Assembly: GCF_002900975.1 (NCBI RefSeq)
Contig: NZ_PJON01000004.1
Coordinates: 186,001-250,000, forward strand
Source: Tabrizicola aquatica
GTDB taxonomy: Bacteria; Pseudomonadota; Alphaproteobacteria; Rhodobacterales; Rhodobacteraceae
DNA: 64,000 bases
Direction: 5' to 3'
Numbering within the stretch: the first letter of the stretch is position 1; the number at the start of each line of letters is the position of its first letter. The notes beneath the pieces are model-generated. The model saw nothing but the letters and a program-made list of their open reading frames with translations, was not told the DNA's origin and did not search any database. The position numbers and the translations under genes are program-made. Shown here in pieces: positions 35,848 to 51,563 of the stretch.

Positions 35848-37434
35848 ATGAATCCGCCCCGGAAGCGCCGATCCATTAGCGATATACAGGCCGACTATGA
35901 TCGGGGCGAAACGGCCGAACTTGAAACGCTGATGCGCGCGTGGAAGGGTATCAAGGAACTTCCCATCAGCGACTCTAATTCTTTCTTCAAGCTTGGCGGT
36001 TTCCATGGCGAGCCGTTTCGCGGACCGGGTGCCAAGACGAATGCCTGGTGGGGTGGATACTGCCAGCATGGCACCGTTCTGTTTCCGACCTGGCACCGCG
36101 TCTACCTTCACAAGCTGGAAAAGGCGCTTCAAAGCATTCCGGGTTGCGAAACCGTCATGCTGCCTTTCTGGGATGAGTGCAGCGAGGACTCTAAGACAAA
36201 GGGTATTCCCCGCGCCCTGACGGATGAAAAATTCATGCTGGATGGCGTCCTGATCGACAACCCCCTGCGGTCATTCGTGTTGCCAACGGCAATCGTCGAC
36301 AATGTCGCCGAGGATTCGGGCACCGATCCCAACTCTCCCAATTACAGCAAGCCTGCGGGATATGAGACCGTGCGTTACCCATTGTCAGGGCTTGTCGGAA
36401 CCGAAGCCGACAGGGCAACAACCCAGGCGCATAACGCGAAATTTCCCAACTATGCCAAGAACGTCTCGATTCTTGACGACAACATCATGGCCTGGCTGAA
36501 ACTGCCGGTCGTGACGGGCGGTGTGACGCGCGGCCTGGTCATCAAGAAGTTCTCCGACTGCATGGATGCTCCAACGTATACGCTGTTCTCGAATACCACC
36601 TCGGCGACGGCCTGGAACAATGCCAACAAGGATCAGCCGGTCGTCCCGCTCGAATCCCCTCACAATTACATGCATCTTGCCGTCGGCGGATTTGACATTC
36701 CGAATTACGACGCGTCGCCGATCACGGGCGCGAATGGCGACATGGGCGAGAATGACACGGCCGGGCTTGATCCGATCTTCTACTTTCACCACTGCTTCAT
36801 CGATTATGCGTTCTGGACATGGCAGCGGCGTCATAATGCCACCCAGGCACTGACGATTGACAGTGACGATCCGGGCGCATCTTACGCGGGGAACCAGCCG
36901 CCCGCCGGTGCCAATCCGGGCGACCAGCTGTCAATGCTGACACCTCTTGTTCCGTTCCAAAAATCAGACGGCGCATACTTCGACAGCAGGGATTGCGTCG
37001 ATATCGAGGGGCAGCTTGGGTACACCTACGGACCTGGATCGCTCGACCATTTTGCCAATGCGCCCCTTGCCACTTTGGCCGTTGGAGACACCCCAACGAC
37101 ACAGATTCTGGTCAGCCATATCGACCGAACCAAGATCTCGGGCTCGTTCATCGTCGCCGTTTATGCCGAGGTCGACGGCGAGCACCGCCTTATTGGGGCA
37201 GAGCCCGTCCTCAGCCGATGGAACGTCACAGGTTGCGCGAATTGCCAGACCAAACTGCGGGTCAGCAGCAGTTTCCACGTGCCGACCGCAAGTCTCGGTG
37301 ATGCCAATATCAAGGTGGCGATCCACACACGCAAAGGTGTGCTAGGCGACAAAGCTCCAGCGATGGTTTCTGCAGGCCAGTTGCGGGCCACGGACAGCGC
37401 CGGCGAAGTCCCCTTCAAGGTGGAAATCCGCTAG
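35848..37434 (+). CDS. Tyrosinase / polyphenol oxidase family copper protein
   Basis: 528 residues. Type-3 copper site: CuA His53, His74 and His83 (GGFHGEPF; YCQHGTVLFPTWHRVYLHKLE) and CuB His272, His276 (SPHNYMHLAVGG) and His314/315 (DPIFYFHHCFIDYAFW). Cys72, two residues before His74, is the position that forms a Cys-His thioether in fungal and plant enzymes. The catalytic domain ends near residue 350; the last 170 residues form a separate beta-rich domain that may shield the site. No signal peptide; no caddie (MelC1-like) gene nearby. Oxidises phenols to quinones; the physiological substrate is unknown. Codon use is more AT-tolerant than the neighbours, so it is probably acquired. Ends at a good terminator-like hairpin. 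Confidence 0.9.
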   Translation: MNPPRKRRSISDIQADYDRGETAELETLMRAWKGIKELPISDSNSFFKLGGFHGEPFRGPGAKTNAWWGGYCQHGTVLFPTWHRVYLHKLEKALQSIPGCETVMLPFWDECSEDSKTKGIPRALTDEKFMLDGVLIDNPLRSFVLPTAIVDNVAEDSGTDPNSPNYSKPAGYETVRYPLSGLVGTEADRATTQAHNAKFPNYAKNVSILDDNIMAWLKLPVVTGGVTRGLVIKKFSDCMDAPTYTLFSNTTSATAWNNANKDQPVVPLESPHNYMHLAVGGFDIPNYDASPITGANGDMGENDTAGLDPIFYFHHCFIDYAFWTWQRRHNATQALTIDSDDPGASYAGNQPPAGANPGDQLSMLTPLVPFQKSDGAYFDSRDCVDIEGQLGYTYGPGSLDHFANAPLATLAVGDTPTTQILVSHIDRTKISGSFIVAVYAEVDGEHRLIGAEPVLSRWNVTGCANCQTKLRVSSSFHVPTASLGDANIKVAIHTRKGVLGDKAPAMVSAGQLRATDSAGEVPFKVEIR

Positions 37435-37441
37435 ATTGAAA

Positions 37442-37477
37442 GGGGGGCGGGGCCTAAAGACCACCATCCCGCCCCCC
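37442..37477 (+). terminator. Terminator-like hairpin after the tyrosinase gene
   Basis: GGGGGGCGGG (37442-37451) and CCCGCCCCCC (37468-37477), 16-nt loop, followed by TTAAC. Stem is strong but the T run is short. Confidence 0.6.
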
Positions 37478-37534
37478 TTAACAAATCCCTAACGCCCGCG
37501 ATCAAGCCATTGAAATAACTTATATATCCCATTT

Positions 37535-37549
37535 TGTCCACCGTGGACA
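37535..37549. repeat. 15-bp perfect palindrome between tyrosinase and acuI
   Basis: TGTCCAC, one central C, GTGGACA. Lies in an AT-rich patch just past the acuI stop codon. No T run on either side, so more like a protein-binding dyad than a terminator. Confidence 0.4.
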
Positions 37550-37553
37550 GGCC

Positions 37554-38543
37554 TCAGGCGTTCACGTCCACCACCACCCGGCCCTGCACGCCCCCCTTCA
37601 GGATCGCCGCCCCCAGCGCGGGCAGGTCCGCCAGCCCCGCCGGCCGCACCATCGCCTCCAGCTTTTCCATCGGCAGGTCGCGGACCAGCCGCCCCCAGGC
37701 CGCCACCCGCCGCTCATAGGGGGCGTTGACCGAGTCGATGCCCAGCAGGTTCACCCCCCGCAGCAGGAACGGGATCACGCTGGCCGGAAGGTTCGCCCCC
37801 CCCGCCAGCCCCACCGCCGCGACCGAGCCGCCGTATTTCAGCTGCCCCAGCACCCGCGCCAGCATCGCCCCCCCGACGGCATCCACACAGCCCGCCCAGG
37901 TCTCGCTCTCCATGGGCCGCTTCACCGTCTCGGCCAGCTCCTCCCGCGGCACGATCCGGGCCGCCCCAAGGTCGCGCAGATACCCCTCCGTCTCCGCCCG
38001 CCCCGTCACCGCCGCGACCTGATAGCCAAGACCAGCCAGCAAGGCGACCGCCACTGACCCGACGCCCCCCGCCGCGCCCGTCACCAGCACCTCGCCCTTC
38101 TCCGGCGTCAGCCCATGCTCCTCCAGCGCCATCACCGCCAGCATCGCCGTGAAACCGGCCGTCCCCACCGCCATCGCCTGCCGCGTCGTCAGCCCCGCAG
38201 GCAGCGGCACCAGCCAGTCCGCCTTGACCCGCGCCTTCTGGGCGTACCCGCCCCAGTGGACCTCCCCCACCCGCCAGCCAGTCAGCACCACCTTGTCGCC
38301 CTGCCGATACCGACCATCCGATGACGCCTCGACAGTTCCCGCAAAGTCGATCCCGCCGACATGCGGCCAGCTCCGCACGATACCGCCCCCGTTCGGCGAC
38401 AACGCCAGCCCGTCCTTGTAATTCAGCGTCGAATACTCGACCGCGACCGTCACATCCCCCGCCGGCAGCGCGCTGTCGTCCAGCTCCCGCACCCGGGCCA
38501 CGGCTGCATCGCCTTCCTTCTCCAGAACCAGTGCGCGGAACAT
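37554..38543 (-). CDS. acuI: Acrylyl-CoA reductase family MDR oxidoreductase
   Basis: 329 residues, zinc-independent medium-chain reductase. The start MFRALVLEKEGDAAVARVRELD, STLNYKDGLAL (substrate-pocket Tyr/Lys), the NADPH motif VLVTGAAGGVGSVAVALLAGLGY and the ending GGVQGRVVVDVNA match the AcuI/YhdH subgroup. AcuI reduces acryloyl-CoA to propionyl-CoA with NADPH, important in DMSP and 3-hydroxypropionate metabolism; YhdH-like members have wider acrylate-detoxification roles. No dmdA or acuR gene is near, so the DMSP link is not supported here. Confidence 0.9.
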   Translation of the reverse strand: MFRALVLEKEGDAAVARVRELDDSALPAGDVTVAVEYSTLNYKDGLALSPNGGGIVRSWPHVGGIDFAGTVEASSDGRYRQGDKVVLTGWRVGEVHWGGYAQKARVKADWLVPLPAGLTTRQAMAVGTAGFTAMLAVMALEEHGLTPEKGEVLVTGAAGGVGSVAVALLAGLGYQVAAVTGRAETEGYLRDLGAARIVPREELAETVKRPMESETWAGCVDAVGGAMLARVLGQLKYGGSVAAVGLAGGANLPASVIPFLLRGVNLLGIDSVNAPYERRVAAWGRLVRDLPMEKLEAMVRPAGLADLPALGAAILKGGVQGRVVVDVNA

Positions 38544-39570: not shown

Positions 39571-40473
39571 CTACTTCTGCTGATGGTTCGGAAAATCTCT
39601 ATCCCACCCCACAAGGCCCCGGATGCCAAATACCGGGGATAGTGGGGCCTCAGCTTCAGATTCTATTTTAGTCCAAGTTTCAACTATTTCTTCTGGGGAT
39701 GCAATTCCTGCAGTAAAGGCATTTGTGATCACGCCACCACGGATCTCGTCCTTAAAACCTGAAATCCGAGTGATAGGCAGCAACCCATAAAAAATATCGT
39801 TACGAACTCTAAGACTGCCCCAAAGATCAACTGGTACCTTCCTGCCATGGCCGTTGTCCAAGTGAGGAGAGTCCCCAAAAACACGAACTTTATCGTGATC
39901 GCCGGGTTCGATCGGTAAATCACCATTATTCCACTTTTCAATCAATATCTCAAAGGGTGTACCCAGTGCTTCCCCATCTTTGTTGAAGACCTGATTTGCG
40001 AACTGAAAATCGTAGGGTAGTGTGAATGGTAGCGGTACGCTCACCGAAAGACCAAAACTCAGGGCAGCACGTCTAAAGTCGCAGATTGCAGGTACCTTTG
40101 CCCTAGCAGTCCACTTGTGCGGATCGGTGTCTACCGGGCTATATAGATCAATCTGCAGCCCTTCTGCACGTATTTTAGCAGTGCCGGTGAAGCCCGCAGG
40201 GCAAACTAAAACACCTTTCTGTGCGCCAACATCATCGAGAAGCCCGTAGAACTCCTCTACAGACTTCACGTCGGCTGGATTCTTGTAATCCTTACAGTCA
40301 ATAACAATTTGAATCTCATACTGACCAATTCTATCGCGAACCAAAACGTCAATCTGCCGTTTCCGCCCGGACTTTCTTCCGAGTAAGTATTGGTTGTGGA
40401 GGACCTTGGCATTCGGCGCCAACTGTCGTTGAATACTGGCTACTAGCGTCTCAAGATCGCGAAAGTCCGACAA
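39571..40473 (-). CDS. Mrr-like restriction endonuclease-fold protein
   Basis: 300 residues. The first 100 residues form an Mrr_cat-type PD-(D/E)xK nuclease: LLGRKSGRKRQIDVLV (Asp42), YEIQIVIDCKDYKNPADVKSVEEF (Asp59-x-Lys61) and AQKGVLVCPAGFTGTA. The next 200 residues are beta-rich and unrecognised. It stands alone, with no methyltransferase or partner genes, in visibly AT-richer DNA than the nrdJ and dehydrogenase genes at its sides, so it is probably acquired. A role in defence (modification-dependent restriction or another DNA target) is plausible but unproven. Low-complexity promoter region not resolved. Confidence 0.8.
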   Translation of the reverse strand: MSDFRDLETLVASIQRQLAPNAKVLHNQYLLGRKSGRKRQIDVLVRDRIGQYEIQIVIDCKDYKNPADVKSVEEFYGLLDDVGAQKGVLVCPAGFTGTAKIRAEGLQIDLYSPVDTDPHKWTARAKVPAICDFRRAALSFGLSVSVPLPFTLPYDFQFANQVFNKDGEALGTPFEILIEKWNNGDLPIEPGDHDKVRVFGDSPHLDNGHGRKVPVDLWGSLRVRNDIFYGLLPITRISGFKDEIRGGVITNAFTAGIASPEEIVETWTKIESEAEAPLSPVFGIRGLVGWDRDFPNHQQK

Positions 40474-47807: not shown

Positions 47808-48005
47808 ATGAACTCGGTCGATCTGGAAGAGAAGGTGGCCCACCTGATCCGGGCGGTGGAGGACCTGTCGGACGTGGTGGCCCGGCAGGCGACCGAGATC
47901 GCGGGGCTGGAGCGGCGGGTTCGGCTGCTGATGGAGAGGGCAGCGGAGGAGGAGGCCCTGGGGGGAGCATCCCCGGACGCGAACGTCCGCCCGCCTCACT
48001 GGTGA
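47808..48005 (+). CDS. slyX: SlyX family protein
   Basis: 65 residues: a single amphipathic coiled coil ([24 protein letters not shown], residues 4-27, then [14 protein letters not shown]) and the Pro-Pro-His-Trp ending typical of SlyX. Function unknown. Short, but coiled-coil pattern, C-terminal motif and clean ATG agree. Divergent from hisS (70 nt). Downstream the GC content falls, at the border of the AT-richer 846-residue gene. Confidence 0.8.
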
Positions 48006-48114
48006 GGGGTGTCCACGCAGGACAGGGTGGAGGCCGCAAAGGATTCCAAGGGGTTAGTCGTGGGCGTTAGGGGTTTGTTAAGGTGTTCAACAGACGCGCC
48101 CCGAAAGATTGGAG

Positions 48115-50655
48115 CTAGTGTGGAAGGCCGTGGATGAGCTCCGGTGTCTTCGAAAGTTTAACTACCTCACAATCCACACCAAGCGGCAAAGCAGCTTCCA
48201 GTGACGACTGTATGCTATCCAATTGTCGCTTACTTGCTGCACCGCAAACTACCAGAACCTTGTCTGGCCGAGCTCTCTCTGCAAACATCGCAAGTTTGCC
48301 AACTTCCTGAGGGGAAAGACTGCTTGCTGTAGTCGCCTCCACAGCAACAACCTCACCATTCACGATAGCCAGAAGATCAATTTCGCAATCATTGGACCGG
48401 TCCTCGCTGTATCCACTTGTCCAGAGCTTGATGGCTGGAACGAAATAGAAGCTTTTCACATTCCACTGCTTAAGCAGATACCCCAAAGCGTAAACCACTG
48501 GCTCCGCTCCATGACTGCCATATGCATTCGTCAACACCTTGTTCAAAACAAAATGCCACTCACCATCGACCATAGCAGCGCGGGTCCTTCCACAAACTTC
48601 ACACCCCAAAACTGAATCGAGCGAAGTGATTGAAGTCCAGTTATCGTGGTAACAATATGAGCATTTCCAATCAACTCCCTGAAAAAGAACTTTCCTCTGA
48701 CATAGAAAGGAAATTGATCGAACTATTTCGGCCTCCAGGTCGGGTTTCATTTCTCCTAAGTTTTCAGCATTTGCTTCGACCGTAGCCTGCCACCTTTGCC
48801 GAAGATCAGAGAATTTTAGGAACCTCCGCCCTCTCCTTATGGTGGACGCTGCCTGAATAGACTTACGCGCAACGTCCTCATGACCTGCACCAGATGAAAT
48901 GTTCCAGTCACCCTGTCCAAACTTCTTCCTTAAAGTCGCAGTCAACCTTTCCACTAACGCGGGGTCATTTACAGCAGAATCGGCCCCAAGTTCGCGAAAC
49001 ACTTTGCTCCAAAATGAGTTCAACAATACATCCACAGCTTCGTTCACTCCCTGAAACTGATGTATTAAGCCTAGAAAGTAGCGCCCCTTATCGCTATAGC
49101 GAACATCCGTAAACCGCTGTCGACGCGTAGGACCGCCCTGCTTAGGTGCCGGCCACTCAAACTGAGACGTCAGTGCTCCACGGATTGCGCGCTCATCGGA
49201 AGGGCAATCAAGAGTGAGTGACTGCAAGTTGGAACAAAGTGACAAGGAGAGTTGGCCGTTGGAATTTACTCTTGAAGTGACAAAGTTTGAGAGTCCAAAC
49301 CCGGATCTCCAAGTCCGCTCTATGTGGAAGAAACGATCAATCCGCAGCCTACGAGGCAAATGCCAGTGATGATTGACGTTTGCATAGGGGCTATGGTCCT
49401 CTGCACGATCAATCGTGAAGTCCACCATCCAGTTTCCCGCAGAGACTGATGTGGGCCCCTGACCTTCCGACACGTGCCAAGGTCTAATCAGGGGGACCGA
49501 ACTCCTATTGCCGTCATACTCCCAAGATAAAGTCTGGACAGGTTCGTTGAAGATTCCAGTCGTGAAATAGTGACTATTCTCATGGAAGTCTGGAACTACT
49601 GCCGCTCCACTTGGGACCACTCTGCACGCAACCCTTTTATAAGGTTGATCCTTTGGAACCAACCTCGACGCAATTTCCTTCAGATCATCCAACGGAAGTG
49701 AGCAGGAGGCTATTGACGCGTATGGCCCATGTTGGTGATCTCGAACACCTTTGTTGTCGATAAGCCTCCAGACTGCGGCAAGGAGATTATCATCCTTGGA
49801 CTGCTGCTGGCTAAGATAGATAGTGCATATCTCACCAGTTCTCGGGCGGTCGTACTTAGATATCACATTCCAAGCAGAAACCCTGTCATCAAATGTGTCG
49901 CCGACAAAGACAGTCACGCCTTGATCCTGAAGAGGATCTTTGGGTCTCACATAGTGTGCGAATGCGTCAGACAGAAGGGATACGGAGAGAATCGATCTAT
50001 TACTTGCGATCTCCTCCAGAAGTTCAGTTTCGCTTGTGATGTAGTCTGCATTTCTAGATTTGGCTGAAGAGCGATTTTCAAGGGATGCCTTCGATATAAG
50101 CGTCTTACAAGAAAATAGCGTCGGCTCAATTCGGCCAATCTGAACGTTCGAAGAAGTGTCCGATATGAACCCAAAATTGTTTTCAATGAACTCAGAATGG
50201 GACTTGTCCCAGAAGCGATCTACGATGAATAATTTGTCAATCGGATCGATGCGGCTCTGCAGGTGTCGCTTTACCATCGGAATCACGGAAACGCTGTGGA
50301 GAGGTTCCAGTGGCAGGGAGACCCTCAGCCGCCTCCAGTCTTCTGCACTACCTGCTAGGTAGTGCAGAACAAGGTCGCCCGGAGTAAACCGTTCATGAAA
50401 ATCCAGGATGGCTGCGTCGGTAAGATCAACGTAGCTGTAAACTACATCTGGATCATAGACTTCCAGCCATTTGGAGTAAACTTCTTCGACTCCGTCACGC
50501 GTCGCTGGTATTATCGGTGATCGTCGACCACCCCAACGTCCAAACGCACTCCTCGAAATAGCGGTCATCTGGTCGTTAATGCTAATTTCTCGATCTACAA
50601 GATATGCAACCCTGAGCGGACGAGCGGTCGCGATGATTTTCTTGTTTCTCTGCAC
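48115..50655 (-). CDS. 846-residue protein of unknown function with zinc ribbon and nuclease-like C-terminus
   Basis: A single large gene in DNA clearly richer in A+T than both sides. Start GTG at 50655 (alternatives lie further in). The N-terminal 150 residues look alpha/beta (RPLRVAYLVDREIS; YDPDVVYSYVDLTDAAILDFHERF; GDLVLHYLAG); the middle (200-650) is mixed and unrecognised. A zinc ribbon follows: Cys665, Cys668, Cys685, Cys688. Then a PD-(D/E)xK-like pattern: CEIDLLAIVNGEVVAVEATT, with Asp760 and Glu773 but Thr775 in place of the usual Lys, and KVLVVCGAAS after it. No signal peptide or membrane segment. No partner gene; ParB-like gene upstream on the same strand, hisS/slyX downstream. 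A defence role is a hypothesis: location, composition and a zinc ribbon plus nuclease-like end fit, but nothing proves it. Confidence 0.75.
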   Translation of the reverse strand: MQRNKKIIATARPLRVAYLVDREISINDQMTAISRSAFGRWGGRRSPIIPATRDGVEEVYSKWLEVYDPDVVYSYVDLTDAAILDFHERFTPGDLVLHYLAGSAEDWRRLRVSLPLEPLHSVSVIPMVKRHLQSRIDPIDKLFIVDRFWDKSHSEFIENNFGFISDTSSNVQIGRIEPTLFSCKTLISKASLENRSSAKSRNADYITSETELLEEIASNRSILSVSLLSDAFAHYVRPKDPLQDQGVTVFVGDTFDDRVSAWNVISKYDRPRTGEICTIYLSQQQSKDDNLLAAVWRLIDNKGVRDHQHGPYASIASCSLPLDDLKEIASRLVPKDQPYKRVACRVVPSGAAVVPDFHENSHYFTTGIFNEPVQTLSWEYDGNRSSVPLIRPWHVSEGQGPTSVSAGNWMVDFTIDRAEDHSPYANVNHHWHLPRRLRIDRFFHIERTWRSGFGLSNFVTSRVNSNGQLSLSLCSNLQSLTLDCPSDERAIRGALTSQFEWPAPKQGGPTRRQRFTDVRYSDKGRYFLGLIHQFQGVNEAVDVLLNSFWSKVFRELGADSAVNDPALVERLTATLRKKFGQGDWNISSGAGHEDVARKSIQAASTIRRGRRFLKFSDLRQRWQATVEANAENLGEMKPDLEAEIVRSISFLCQRKVLFQGVDWKCSYCYHDNWTSITSLDSVLGCEVCGRTRAAMVDGEWHFVLNKVLTNAYGSHGAEPVVYALGYLLKQWNVKSFYFVPAIKLWTSGYSEDRSNDCEIDLLAIVNGEVVAVEATTASSLSPQEVGKLAMFAERARPDKVLVVCGAASKRQLDSIQSSLEAALPLGVDCEVVKLSKTPELIHGLPH

Positions 50656-50741
50656 AACTTCGCTCGCTCAATAAACCATTCAGGTGCAGCAATAGCTTCG
50701 CAGATGTTTAGCATTACGGCAATCCACCGATATGCAGATGC

Positions 50742-51563
50742 TCACACCTCCCCAAACCACTCCTCCACCTTGTCCAGCACGTCGTCGATCAGCCCTGACC
50801 TCGCCTGAGGCCCGCTGAACCGCAGGAGCCAGCCGGAGGGCGTCGGCTCCCGCGTGATCGTCAGGCCCTGGCGGAGCTTCAACAGCCTTCGTGGGCGGCG
50901 GGTGGTGGGGTTGGTGGGCTCTCGCAGCACATCCTGCAGGACGGGGCGGAGGGTGGACCATTGGGTCTCGCTCCCCTGGCCCATGACGGGGTGGAGGGTG
51001 GCGGTGAGGAGATCCTCGTGCCCCGACTGGAGTGCTGCGGCGAGGGTGTCGAGTTGGCGGGTGGTGAGGTGGGTCGGGTCGGTGAGGAGGGGGGCGAGGC
51101 CTTCGACCACGGACACATGGTTGCGGATGCGGGTGCGGGTGGTGCGGGGGAGGGCGGGGAAGAGGGCGGCGATGGCGGTATCGGGGGTGTCGAAGTGGCC
51201 CTCATGGATGGCGTTCAGGATGAGGGTGGCCTTTTCCCACGGGGTGACGGGTTCGCGGATCTCGTTTTCGGTCACCATCGAGGCGAGGGCCTGGGCGATG
51301 GTTTGCGGGGCGCGGAGGAAGGCGGGGATCGTCGTGTGGCCCAGGGCGCGGCAGGCGGTGAGGCGGCGGAGGCCGGAGATGAGGCCGTAGGTGTGGCCGT
51401 GCTTCGGGGTGGAGAGGCGCCAGACCTCGATGGGGGTGCGGAGGCCCTCGGTCGCGATGGAGTGCTGGAGGAGGTGGAGGGCGGCGGGGTCCAGCGCGGT
51501 GCGGTCGCGGAGGAGGGCGTGGGGGGCGATTTCCGGGATGGGGAGGTGGTGGAGGGGGTCCAT
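50742..51563 (-). CDS. ParB/RepB-type N-terminal domain protein, orphan
   Basis: 273 residues. The ParB N-terminal domain is visible: LPIPEIAPHALLRDR, LQHSIATEGLRTPIEVWRL, YGLISGLRRLTACRALG (the nucleotide/box II GxRR motif), TIPAFLR, then a helix-turn-helix middle region VTENEIREPVTPWEKATLIL with the plasmid-type arrangement. It is not the chromosomal partition ParB, as no parA neighbour and no typical ParB C-terminus occur. It may be a transcription factor or a remnant of a plasmid partition system. Lies 93 nt after dnaE. Confidence 0.8.
   Translation of the reverse strand: MDPLHHLPIPEIAPHALLRDRTALDPAALHLLQHSIATEGLRTPIEVWRLSTPKHGHTYGLISGLRRLTACRALGHTTIPAFLRAPQTIAQALASMVTENEIREPVTPWEKATLILNAIHEGHFDTPDTAIAALFPALPRTTRTRIRNHVSVVEGLAPLLTDPTHLTTRQLDTLAAALQSGHEDLLTATLHPVMGQGSETQWSTLRPVLQDVLREPTNPTTRRPRRLLKLRQGLTITREPTPSGWLLRFSGPQARSGLIDDVLDKVEEWFGEV

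What the first reader, a model, noticed from the sequence alone, without database searches (positions are those of the whole stretch)
48115..50655. Solitary 846-residue protein with zinc ribbon and nuclease-like end in AT-richer DNA: candidate single-gene defence system
Seen: a long uninterrupted gene in DNA clearly more A+T rich than slyX/hisS on one side and parB/dnaE on the other; no partner; four Cys in two CxxC pairs (665/668, 685/688) near the C-terminus, then Asp760...Glu773-Ala-Thr775, resembling a PD-(D/E)xK site with the Lys replaced. The N-terminal 150 residues look alpha/beta and the centre is unrecognised. Known: large single genes with a nuclease-like end in acquired DNA are often anti-phage systems. 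Inference: defence or mobile-element function. The Thr in place of Lys may mean a variant site or loss of catalysis.
Basis: partly seen in the sequence, partly recalled or inferred. Interest (0 to 1): 0.8.

Follow-up and report, generated by a model that had tools for sequence, protein, structure and literature searches.

The report
Acquired Card1-like nuclease, probable phage defence
This is a horizontally acquired single gene from an unnamed family of large proteins that end in a zinc ribbon and a nuclease domain; relatives sit in phage satellites, prophages and next to integrases, so it is probably an undescribed phage-defence gene, but nobody has tested it.

Summary
In detail: an intact 846-codon gene with 49% G+C at third positions (hisS and dnaE: 86-87%) sits alone between slyX and a parB-like gene. 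Pfam, NCBIfam, PADLOC and PHROGs have no family for it. Relatives occur sporadically in Proteobacteria and, more doubtfully, Streptomyces. Fourteen aligned members share four zinc-ribbon Cys, Asp760 and Glu773. Structure and profile comparisons put the C-terminal domain among PD-(D/E)XK nucleases, nearest the Card1/Can2 type. The catalytic Lys is kept in 11 of 14; the window protein and two Rhodobacteraceae relatives have Thr, plus Lys787 in the next helix, a migration reported for other families. dN/dS of 0.11 between those two relatives argues for function. Context suggests defence: an E. coli relative lies in the int-psu slot of a P4-like satellite, and in nine congeners the slyX|parB slot holds a different A+T-richer insert each; four of eight cargo proteins scanned match defence or candidate-defence models (OLD, PtuA-like, PDC-S06, PDC-S13), none of 11 core genes does. 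Most likely an infection-sensing N-terminal part switches on the nuclease; that is inferred, and no activity is shown. New variant of a known kind.

The parts
48115..50655 (-). 846-aa protein: N-terminal alpha/beta part, Rossmann-like part, zinc ribbon, PD-(D/E)XK-type nuclease domain
50386..50655 (-). residues 1-90, beta-alpha-beta start of the protein (G43 in 12 and D70 in 13 of 14 members); fold not resolved
   Evidence: model pLDDT under 50 for most of it
49594..49929 (-). residues 243-354, Rossmann-like alpha/beta unit with the family motif D257 ... W262-N263; proposed sensor
   Evidence: VIA-align rows spanning 243-354; W262 and N263 in 13 of 14 sequences; pLDDT mixed, about 38-85
48577..48687 (-). 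residues 657-693, zinc ribbon C665-x2-C668 ... C685-x2-C688
   Evidence: all four Cys in 14 of 14 sequences
48136..48516 (-). residues 714-840, restriction-endonuclease-like domain, E758-x-D760 ... E773-x-T775, Lys787 in the following helix
48331..48333 (-). codon of T775, the position that is Lys in 11 of 14 members
48295..48297 (-). codon of K787, candidate migrated catalytic Lys (helix 782-795)
   Evidence: precedent in PMC1913061, passages
48085..50741 (.). variable one-cargo slot: in nine congeneric genomes this interval holds unrelated, A+T-richer inserts
47997..48085 (+). conserved left border: terminator-like palindrome plus a dispersed repeat of the genus (97 matches in the genome, this one scoring best)
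47809..48005 (+). slyX, left flank of the slot
50742..51563 (-). ParB_N-domain protein, right flank of the slot

Best explanation
The gene is cargo: a single-gene, probably anti-phage effector that entered a one-cargo slot between slyX and the parB-like gene. Shown: the sequence family, its invariant residues, a nuclease-type C-terminal domain (by prediction and profile comparison), the mobile setting of many relatives, and the variable cargo of this slot. Inferred: by analogy with Card1/Can2 (Rossmann-type sensor plus PD-ExK nuclease), the N-terminal two thirds sense an infection cue, perhaps a small ligand; the zinc ribbon helps to hold nucleic acid; and the C-terminal domain then cuts DNA or RNA, stopping the phage and possibly cell growth. 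In the window lineage the catalytic Lys has probably moved from motif III (T775) to the next helix (K787); failing that, the domain binds without cutting.
For: Relatives as cargo: E. coli AR_0369 integrase / gene / psu in a P4-like satellite, ECZP248 ssrA / integrase / gene, G559 integrase / gene at 31% G+C, L010 downstream of a phage integrase gene, a Mu-like phage contig, a second phage contig beside an HTH gene, a B. glumae plasmid with three tandem tyrosine recombinases and one small gene upstream, and a Bradyrhizobium plasmid near an abortive-infection-family gene and next to a PrlF/YhaV pair. PMC9122126 (passages) describes the psu-int locus as a reservoir of anti-phage systems. Slot swapping: 10 genomes, 10 inserts with no shared cargo protein found; 4 of 8 scanned cargo proteins match PADLOC strongly, 0 of 11 core genes do. 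Nuclease: EcoT38I first in Foldseek, E 5e-3, prob 0.96; VIA-align Z 8.1 to VC1899 and Can2 with the window model, 11.1 to Card1 with a relative's model; best PDB chain for the 12-row profile is Can2, E 0.006; hhalign with a Card1 alignment gives 62.8% for the full length and 82.6%, score 46.1, for the C-terminal part, against a top score of 17.2 in 40 column shuffles. Selection: dN/dS 0.107 over the gene and 0.088 over zinc ribbon plus nuclease between L010 and L022, which have the Thr.
Against: No activity or protection is shown for any member. No PADLOC, Pfam, NCBIfam or confident PHROGs family. Part of the mobile setting is built in: seven relatives were found by searching plasmid and viral collections; of the ten loci found in whole genomes, six show an integrase next to or near the gene. 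Both structure models are poor overall (mean pLDDT 43 and 51), and a best Z of 7 to 8 is common for models without a clear match (note). The Can2 profile hit did not recur with the 9-row or 3-row profiles. The sensor region has no sequence similarity to Card1 (hhalign probability 0.1%). The window protein lacks the motif III Lys. Members are rare (2 of 295 genomes of the family; 2 of 5,426 E. coli in a nucleotide search with one subfamily). Four congeneric slots gave no clear defence match, one of them holding a Mu F-like phage gene, and G1025 was not scanned. L095 sits among ordinary genes with no mobile element seen.
Confidence: 0.55

Rival explanations
1. The E-x-T lineage has lost catalysis. 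The domain binds nucleic acid and serves as sensor, recruiter or decoy, originally for the NTPase partner seen in L010 and L022.
For: T775 in the window, L010 and L022; those two relatives have an NTPase gene ending 9 bp upstream, whose own N-terminal end looks REase-like to me, also with E-x-T (by eye).
Against: D760 and E773 are invariant; zinc ribbon plus nuclease dN/dS 0.088; Lys787 is in all three E-x-T sequences and in 1 of 11 E-x-K sequences; a published precedent reads Thr in motif III plus basic residues in the motif IV helix as a likely migrated active site (PMC1913061, passages).
Confidence: 0.22
2. It is the orphaned half of a two-gene NTPase-nuclease defence system and is now idle in this genome.
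For: The closest relatives carry the NTPase upstream; a third locus, L094, keeps only a remnant of it; the own genome gave no NTPase match.
Against: No such NTPase was annotated or noticed directly upstream in L002, L003, L009, L011, L016, L017, L018, L019, L086 or L095 (by annotation and eye, not by a search). The window ORF is intact over 846 codons although its composition is foreign. The own-genome search had no positive control.
Confidence: 0.15
3. It serves the mobile element (transposition, integration, plasmid upkeep) and not defence.
For: Tyrosine recombinases or integrases stand next to or near several members.
Against: The recombinases differ between loci, and the window, L009, L018, L019, L020, L086 and L095 show no recombinase directly beside the gene.
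Confidence: 0.12
4. It is a chromosomal repair nuclease.
For: EndoMS and a Pyrococcus repair endonuclease are among the VIA-align rows.
Against: Sporadic distribution and no similar cargo in the same slot of nine congeners.
Confidence: 0.03

Closest known systems
Card1 / Can2 / VC1899 (DUF1887, Pfam PF09002 Card1_endonuc)
   Same: C-terminal PD-ExK nuclease with E-x-D then E-x-K; a Rossmann-like part lies before the nuclease; best profile and VIA-align matches
   Different: About twice as long, has a zinc ribbon, no CARF similarity in sequence, no cas gene annotated in seven neighbourhoods, no PF09002 hit; the window lineage lacks the motif III Lys
EcoT38I and other PD-(D/E)XK restriction enzymes
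   Same: Endonuclease fold
   Different: No methylase beside the window gene; different N-terminal two thirds
Cargo systems of the P4 psu-int hotspot (Rousset et al. 2022, PMC9122126)
   Same: The E. coli homologue WP_086676113.1 occupies that slot in AR_0369
   Different: The passages I read do not describe this family; the supplementary tables were not open to me
DUF1626 and similar PD-(D/E)XK families with Thr in motif III (PMC1913061)
   Same: Thr for the motif III Lys with basic residues in the motif IV helix (passages)
   Different: No direct sequence comparison was made

Membership tests
PD-(D/E)XK nuclease superfamily | Restriction-endonuclease-like core fold | tested here: met
   Foldseek EcoT38I E 5e-3, prob 0.96; VIA-align Z 8.1, 101-115 residues, 2.8-3.9 A; pLDDT 76-90 for residues 761-830. 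By prediction only
PD-(D/E)XK nuclease superfamily | Acidic residues of motifs II and III | tested here: met
   D760 and E773 in 14 of 14 sequences
PD-(D/E)XK nuclease superfamily | Motif III Lys | tested here: not met
   T775 in the window, L010 and L022; Lys in the other 11 of 14. The superfamily has such variants (PMC1913061, passages)
PD-(D/E)XK nuclease superfamily | Migrated Lys in the motif IV helix | tested here: inconclusive
   K787 in all 3 E-x-T sequences and 1 of 11 others; one clade, so one event; no distance could be measured
Card1/Can2 (DUF1887) | Nuclease domain homologous to PF09002 | tested here: inconclusive
   hhalign 82.6% over 58 columns, score 46.1 against at most 17.2 in 40 shuffles, 62.8% for the full length; profile hit to Can2 E 0.006 with A5 but not with A1 or A9; no PF09002 hit by hmmscan
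Card1/Can2 (DUF1887) | N-terminal CARF domain | tested here: inconclusive
   Residues 243-354 give mostly generic Rossmann rows; no sequence similarity
Card1/Can2 (DUF1887) | Association with type III CRISPR | tested here: inconclusive
   No cas gene annotated in seven neighbourhoods; the plasmid gene tables are incomplete and whole genomes were not searched for cas genes
Any PADLOC 2.0 defence system | Match to a PADLOC model | tested here: not met
   0 hits for the window protein and for 10 relatives
Anti-phage defence system | Protects cells against phage | not testable with these tools
   needs a plaque assay
   Neither is among the rows listed; a family not listed is not excluded

The most novel reading that the evidence does not exclude
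A new class of stand-alone, ligand-gated defence nuclease: a Rossmann-type sensor that is not CARF and works outside CRISPR, joined through a zinc ribbon to a Card1-like nuclease, with a Rhodobacteraceae branch whose catalytic Lys has migrated to the next helix and which has gained or lost partner genes.
Probability: 0.22. Interest if true: 0.72.

Novelty: new variant of a known kind. Interest (0 to 1): 0.52.

Why it matters
It points out a family that the profile libraries searched here miss, gives a laboratory-tractable E. coli member in a known defence slot, and shows a one-cargo chromosomal slot in a Rhodobacteraceae genus that can be mined for further single-gene systems. The E-x-T branch is a direct test of catalytic-Lys migration inside one protein family.

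Tried and rejected
Single-protein scan of genome contigs with the window protein: nothing; the three-row alignment A4 gave only L021 and L022. Phage records: no match with three queries. The L011 protein: no plasmid match. Viral scans: A2 returned L009 again; P0006 and A8 gave nothing. BFVD structure search: no informative match. Mrr or VRR relationship: neither is listed, which does not exclude it.

The conserved 89-bp left border (palindrome plus GTTAGGGGTTTGTTAAG) first looked like an attachment site. A sequence model found 97 matches in the own genome. Among the best 30, 3 have a downstream 1.5 kb under 58% G+C and none an upstream one, against 8 of 125 sliding windows in the 64-kb window. 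I therefore treat it as a dispersed repeat with a terminator, not as an insertion signal. Rfam: no match at 47900-50800.

CARF identity of residues 243-354: not supported by sequence; the structure rows are mostly generic Rossmann folds. The first three Foldseek matches of the L086 model are Can2, but at 12 A rmsd over about 300 columns, so only the domain-wise VIA-align rows are used.

Rows dropped before the 14-sequence count: L093 (near copy of L012), L017 (same protein accession as L016), L013 and L054-L057 (fragments), L094 (truncated). L095 was used from an internal GTG, without about 75 N-terminal residues. Of 12 Card1-family ORFs, L142, L144 and L145 were left out of the hhalign alignment and the N-terminal ends of L137 and L139 were trimmed. 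Genomes left out of the slot count: G1033 (contig end), G1024 and G1035 (locus not conserved), G1036 and G1038 (fragments), G1023, G1027, G1029 and G1037 (no usable match).

Literature: searches listed no paper that, by title and abstract start, describes this family; of the listed papers only passages of PMC9122126 and PMC13092281 (no mention of the accession or of a zinc ribbon in the main text) were read. Supplementary files could not be read, so absence in print is not shown.

Full report
What is there. The 846-codon gene at 48115-50655 (-) is intact. Its G+C is 49% and its third-position G+C 49%, against 86-87% in dnaE and hisS. slyX/hisS flank it on one side and a ParB_N protein and dnaE on the other. 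The window lies in a 3.87-Mb genome with one match to the protein. The host belongs to the same family as Amylibacter (Paramylibacter) kogurei, because genome G565 of that family has the same 1,316,319-base contig as the named record of L021.

Relatives. Pfam, PADLOC, NCBIfam and PHROGs give no family for the window protein. tblastn finds three plasmid records of 72,556 and none of 50,697 phage records. Profile searches give 5 of 398 genomes in the phylum, 2 of 295 in the family, 4 of 274 in the class of G559 and 6 of 194 in the order of G565; these counts include genomes already in the query alignment, overlap in part, and hold some partial matches. The window protein alone found only itself in 385 genomes of the class. 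A nucleotide search with the G559 gene finds 2 of 5,426 complete E. coli genomes. More distant members lie on Photobacterium, Bradyrhizobium and Streptomyces plasmids (the Streptomyces match covers only 18% of the query at E 5e-4) and in two viral contigs.

Anatomy. In 14 aligned members, C665, C668, C685, C688, D760 and E773 are invariant; position 758 is Glu in 12 and Asp in 2; W262 and N263 are kept in 13. The window model is poor overall (mean pLDDT 43) but good at 761-830, with beta 757-765, beta 768-774, helix 782-795 and beta 799-804. Foldseek's first match is the restriction enzyme EcoT38I (E 5e-3, prob 0.96). VIA-align gives Z 8.1 (115 residues, 3.6 A) to VC1899 and 8.1 (115 residues, 3.9 A) to Can2. 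The model of the relative L086 (mean pLDDT 51) gives Z 11.1 (165 residues, 3.9 A) to Card1. The tool notes that a best Z of 7 to 8 is common for models without a clear match, so I also tested sequence. The 12-row profile's best PDB chain is Can2, E 0.006, but the 3-row and 9-row profiles do not list it. A Card1 alignment of nine sequences made from PF09002 hits matches the full-length family with hhalign probability 62.8% and the C-terminal part with 82.6% and score 46.1, while 40 column-shuffled controls reach at most 17.2 and the N-terminal 650 residues score 0.1%. PMC7969007 (passages) gives Glu276/Asp278 as Can2 active-site residues, the same E-x-D spacing as E758/D760.

The missing Lys. 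Position 775 is Lys in 11 of 14 members and Thr in the window, L010 and L022. L010 and L022 are 86% identical, with dN/dS 0.107 over the gene and 0.088 over zinc ribbon plus nuclease, so the Thr form is kept by selection in that pair. Lys787 is present in all three Thr members and in 1 of 11 others. PMC1913061 (passages) describes this for DUF1626: Thr often in motif III, with basic residues in the following helix when it is. Migration is therefore plausible but unproved, and the three Thr members are a single clade, hence one event.

Partners. L010 has a phage integrase gene, then a 1226-aa NTPase (weak AAA_16) ending 9 bp before the gene. L022 has the same pair, the NTPase being split by an in-frame stop into 1011 and 212 codons. 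L094 keeps a C-terminal remnant of the NTPase and 358 codons of the gene, next to what look like IS3-type transposase genes. L093, and in broken form L012, have a 441-aa gene upstream instead. The own genome gave no NTPase match (no positive control).

Mobile setting. Seventeen loci were inspected. Seven were found in the plasmid and viral collections (L002, L003, L018, L019, L020, L009, L086) and are mobile by construction. Of the ten found in whole genomes or E. coli chromosomes, six have an integrase next to or near the gene: L010, L011, L012, L016, L017, L093 (those of L012 and L093 named by eye). The window, L022 (contig edge), L094 and L095 show none beside an intact gene. In E. coli AR_0369 the order is integrase, gene, psu, ogr/Delta-like, the psu-int locus that PMC9122126 (passages) calls a reservoir of antiviral systems.

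The slot. In nine other genomes of the genus the slyX|parB interval could be read; in six both flanks lie on the locus, while G1030, G1034 and G1039 were recognised from one flank or a parB piece plus the left border. Lengths are 1.4-2.5 kb and G+C 48-57%, against 66-70% in seven hisS genes measured. Among stop-to-stop frames of 100 aa or more, no cargo protein is shared between the ten intervals; the blastn and four tblastn cross-matches all fall in repeat-like DNA near the parB end. One protein each from eight intervals was scanned; G1025 and second ORFs of G1032 and G926 were not. PADLOC gave Old 4e-61 (G1039), PtuA1 3.5e-25 (G1031), PDC-S06 1.7e-134 (G1030), PDC-S13 4.5e-14 (G1034), one weak HTH match (G1026, 0.004) and nothing for three (G1032, whose cargo is Mu F-like by Pfam, G926, G1028). 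Eleven core genes of the window gave none (6, 5). The slot is thus a variable cargo site that often holds defence-type genes; the sample is small. ATPase domains inflate PADLOC matches, but OLD is also supported by Pfam OLD-like_TOPRIM, 9.4e-20.

Judgement. An acquired, probably defensive, sensor-type nuclease is the best reading. The chain from sensing to cutting is inferred from Card1/Can2 and not shown. I call it Card1/Can2-like in its nuclease and do not file it as a member of that family: there is no PF09002 hit, the CARF and CRISPR tests are inconclusive, and the window lineage lacks the motif III Lys.

Noticed in passing
window 39571-40473 (-): Another A+T-richer gene: a 300-aa protein with an Mrr_cat restriction-endonuclease domain (Pfam 1.6e-11) and a weak PADLOC candidate match (PDC-S02, 2.9e-5).
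   Followed up: partly
window 35848-37434 (+): A+T-richer tyrosinase gene (Pfam 1.6e-41) next to a second copy of the 89-bp border repeat (37475-37565).
   Followed up: partly
window 47997-48085 and 37475-37565: Dispersed repeat: palindrome TGTCCACGGTGGACA or a variant, then a conserved 3' part ending near GTTAGGGGTTTGTTAAG; 97 matches in the genome at E 1e-3. Function unknown; the end fits TTAG-N7-TTAA, near the CtrA site spacing (recalled, not tested).
   Followed up: partly
window about 50000-51500: GC skew changes from mostly negative to positive here, so the slot may lie at a replichore boundary.
   Followed up: no
L058, L060-L065, L081, L083: slyX|parB slot of congeners with OLD, PtuA-like, PDC-S06, KilA-N/PDC-S13, HTH, Mu F-like and unknown cargo.
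   Followed up: partly
L010 6293-9973 and L022 318-3998: NTPase partner (no PADLOC match in L010) whose N-terminal end looks like an REase domain with E-x-T, like the nuclease itself (by eye).
   Followed up: partly
L094 8246-10514: Relative of the window gene that stops after 358 codons beside what look like IS3-type transposase genes.
   Followed up: partly
L093 10213-11538: 441-aa upstream partner without a Pfam or PADLOC match; broken in L012.
   Followed up: partly
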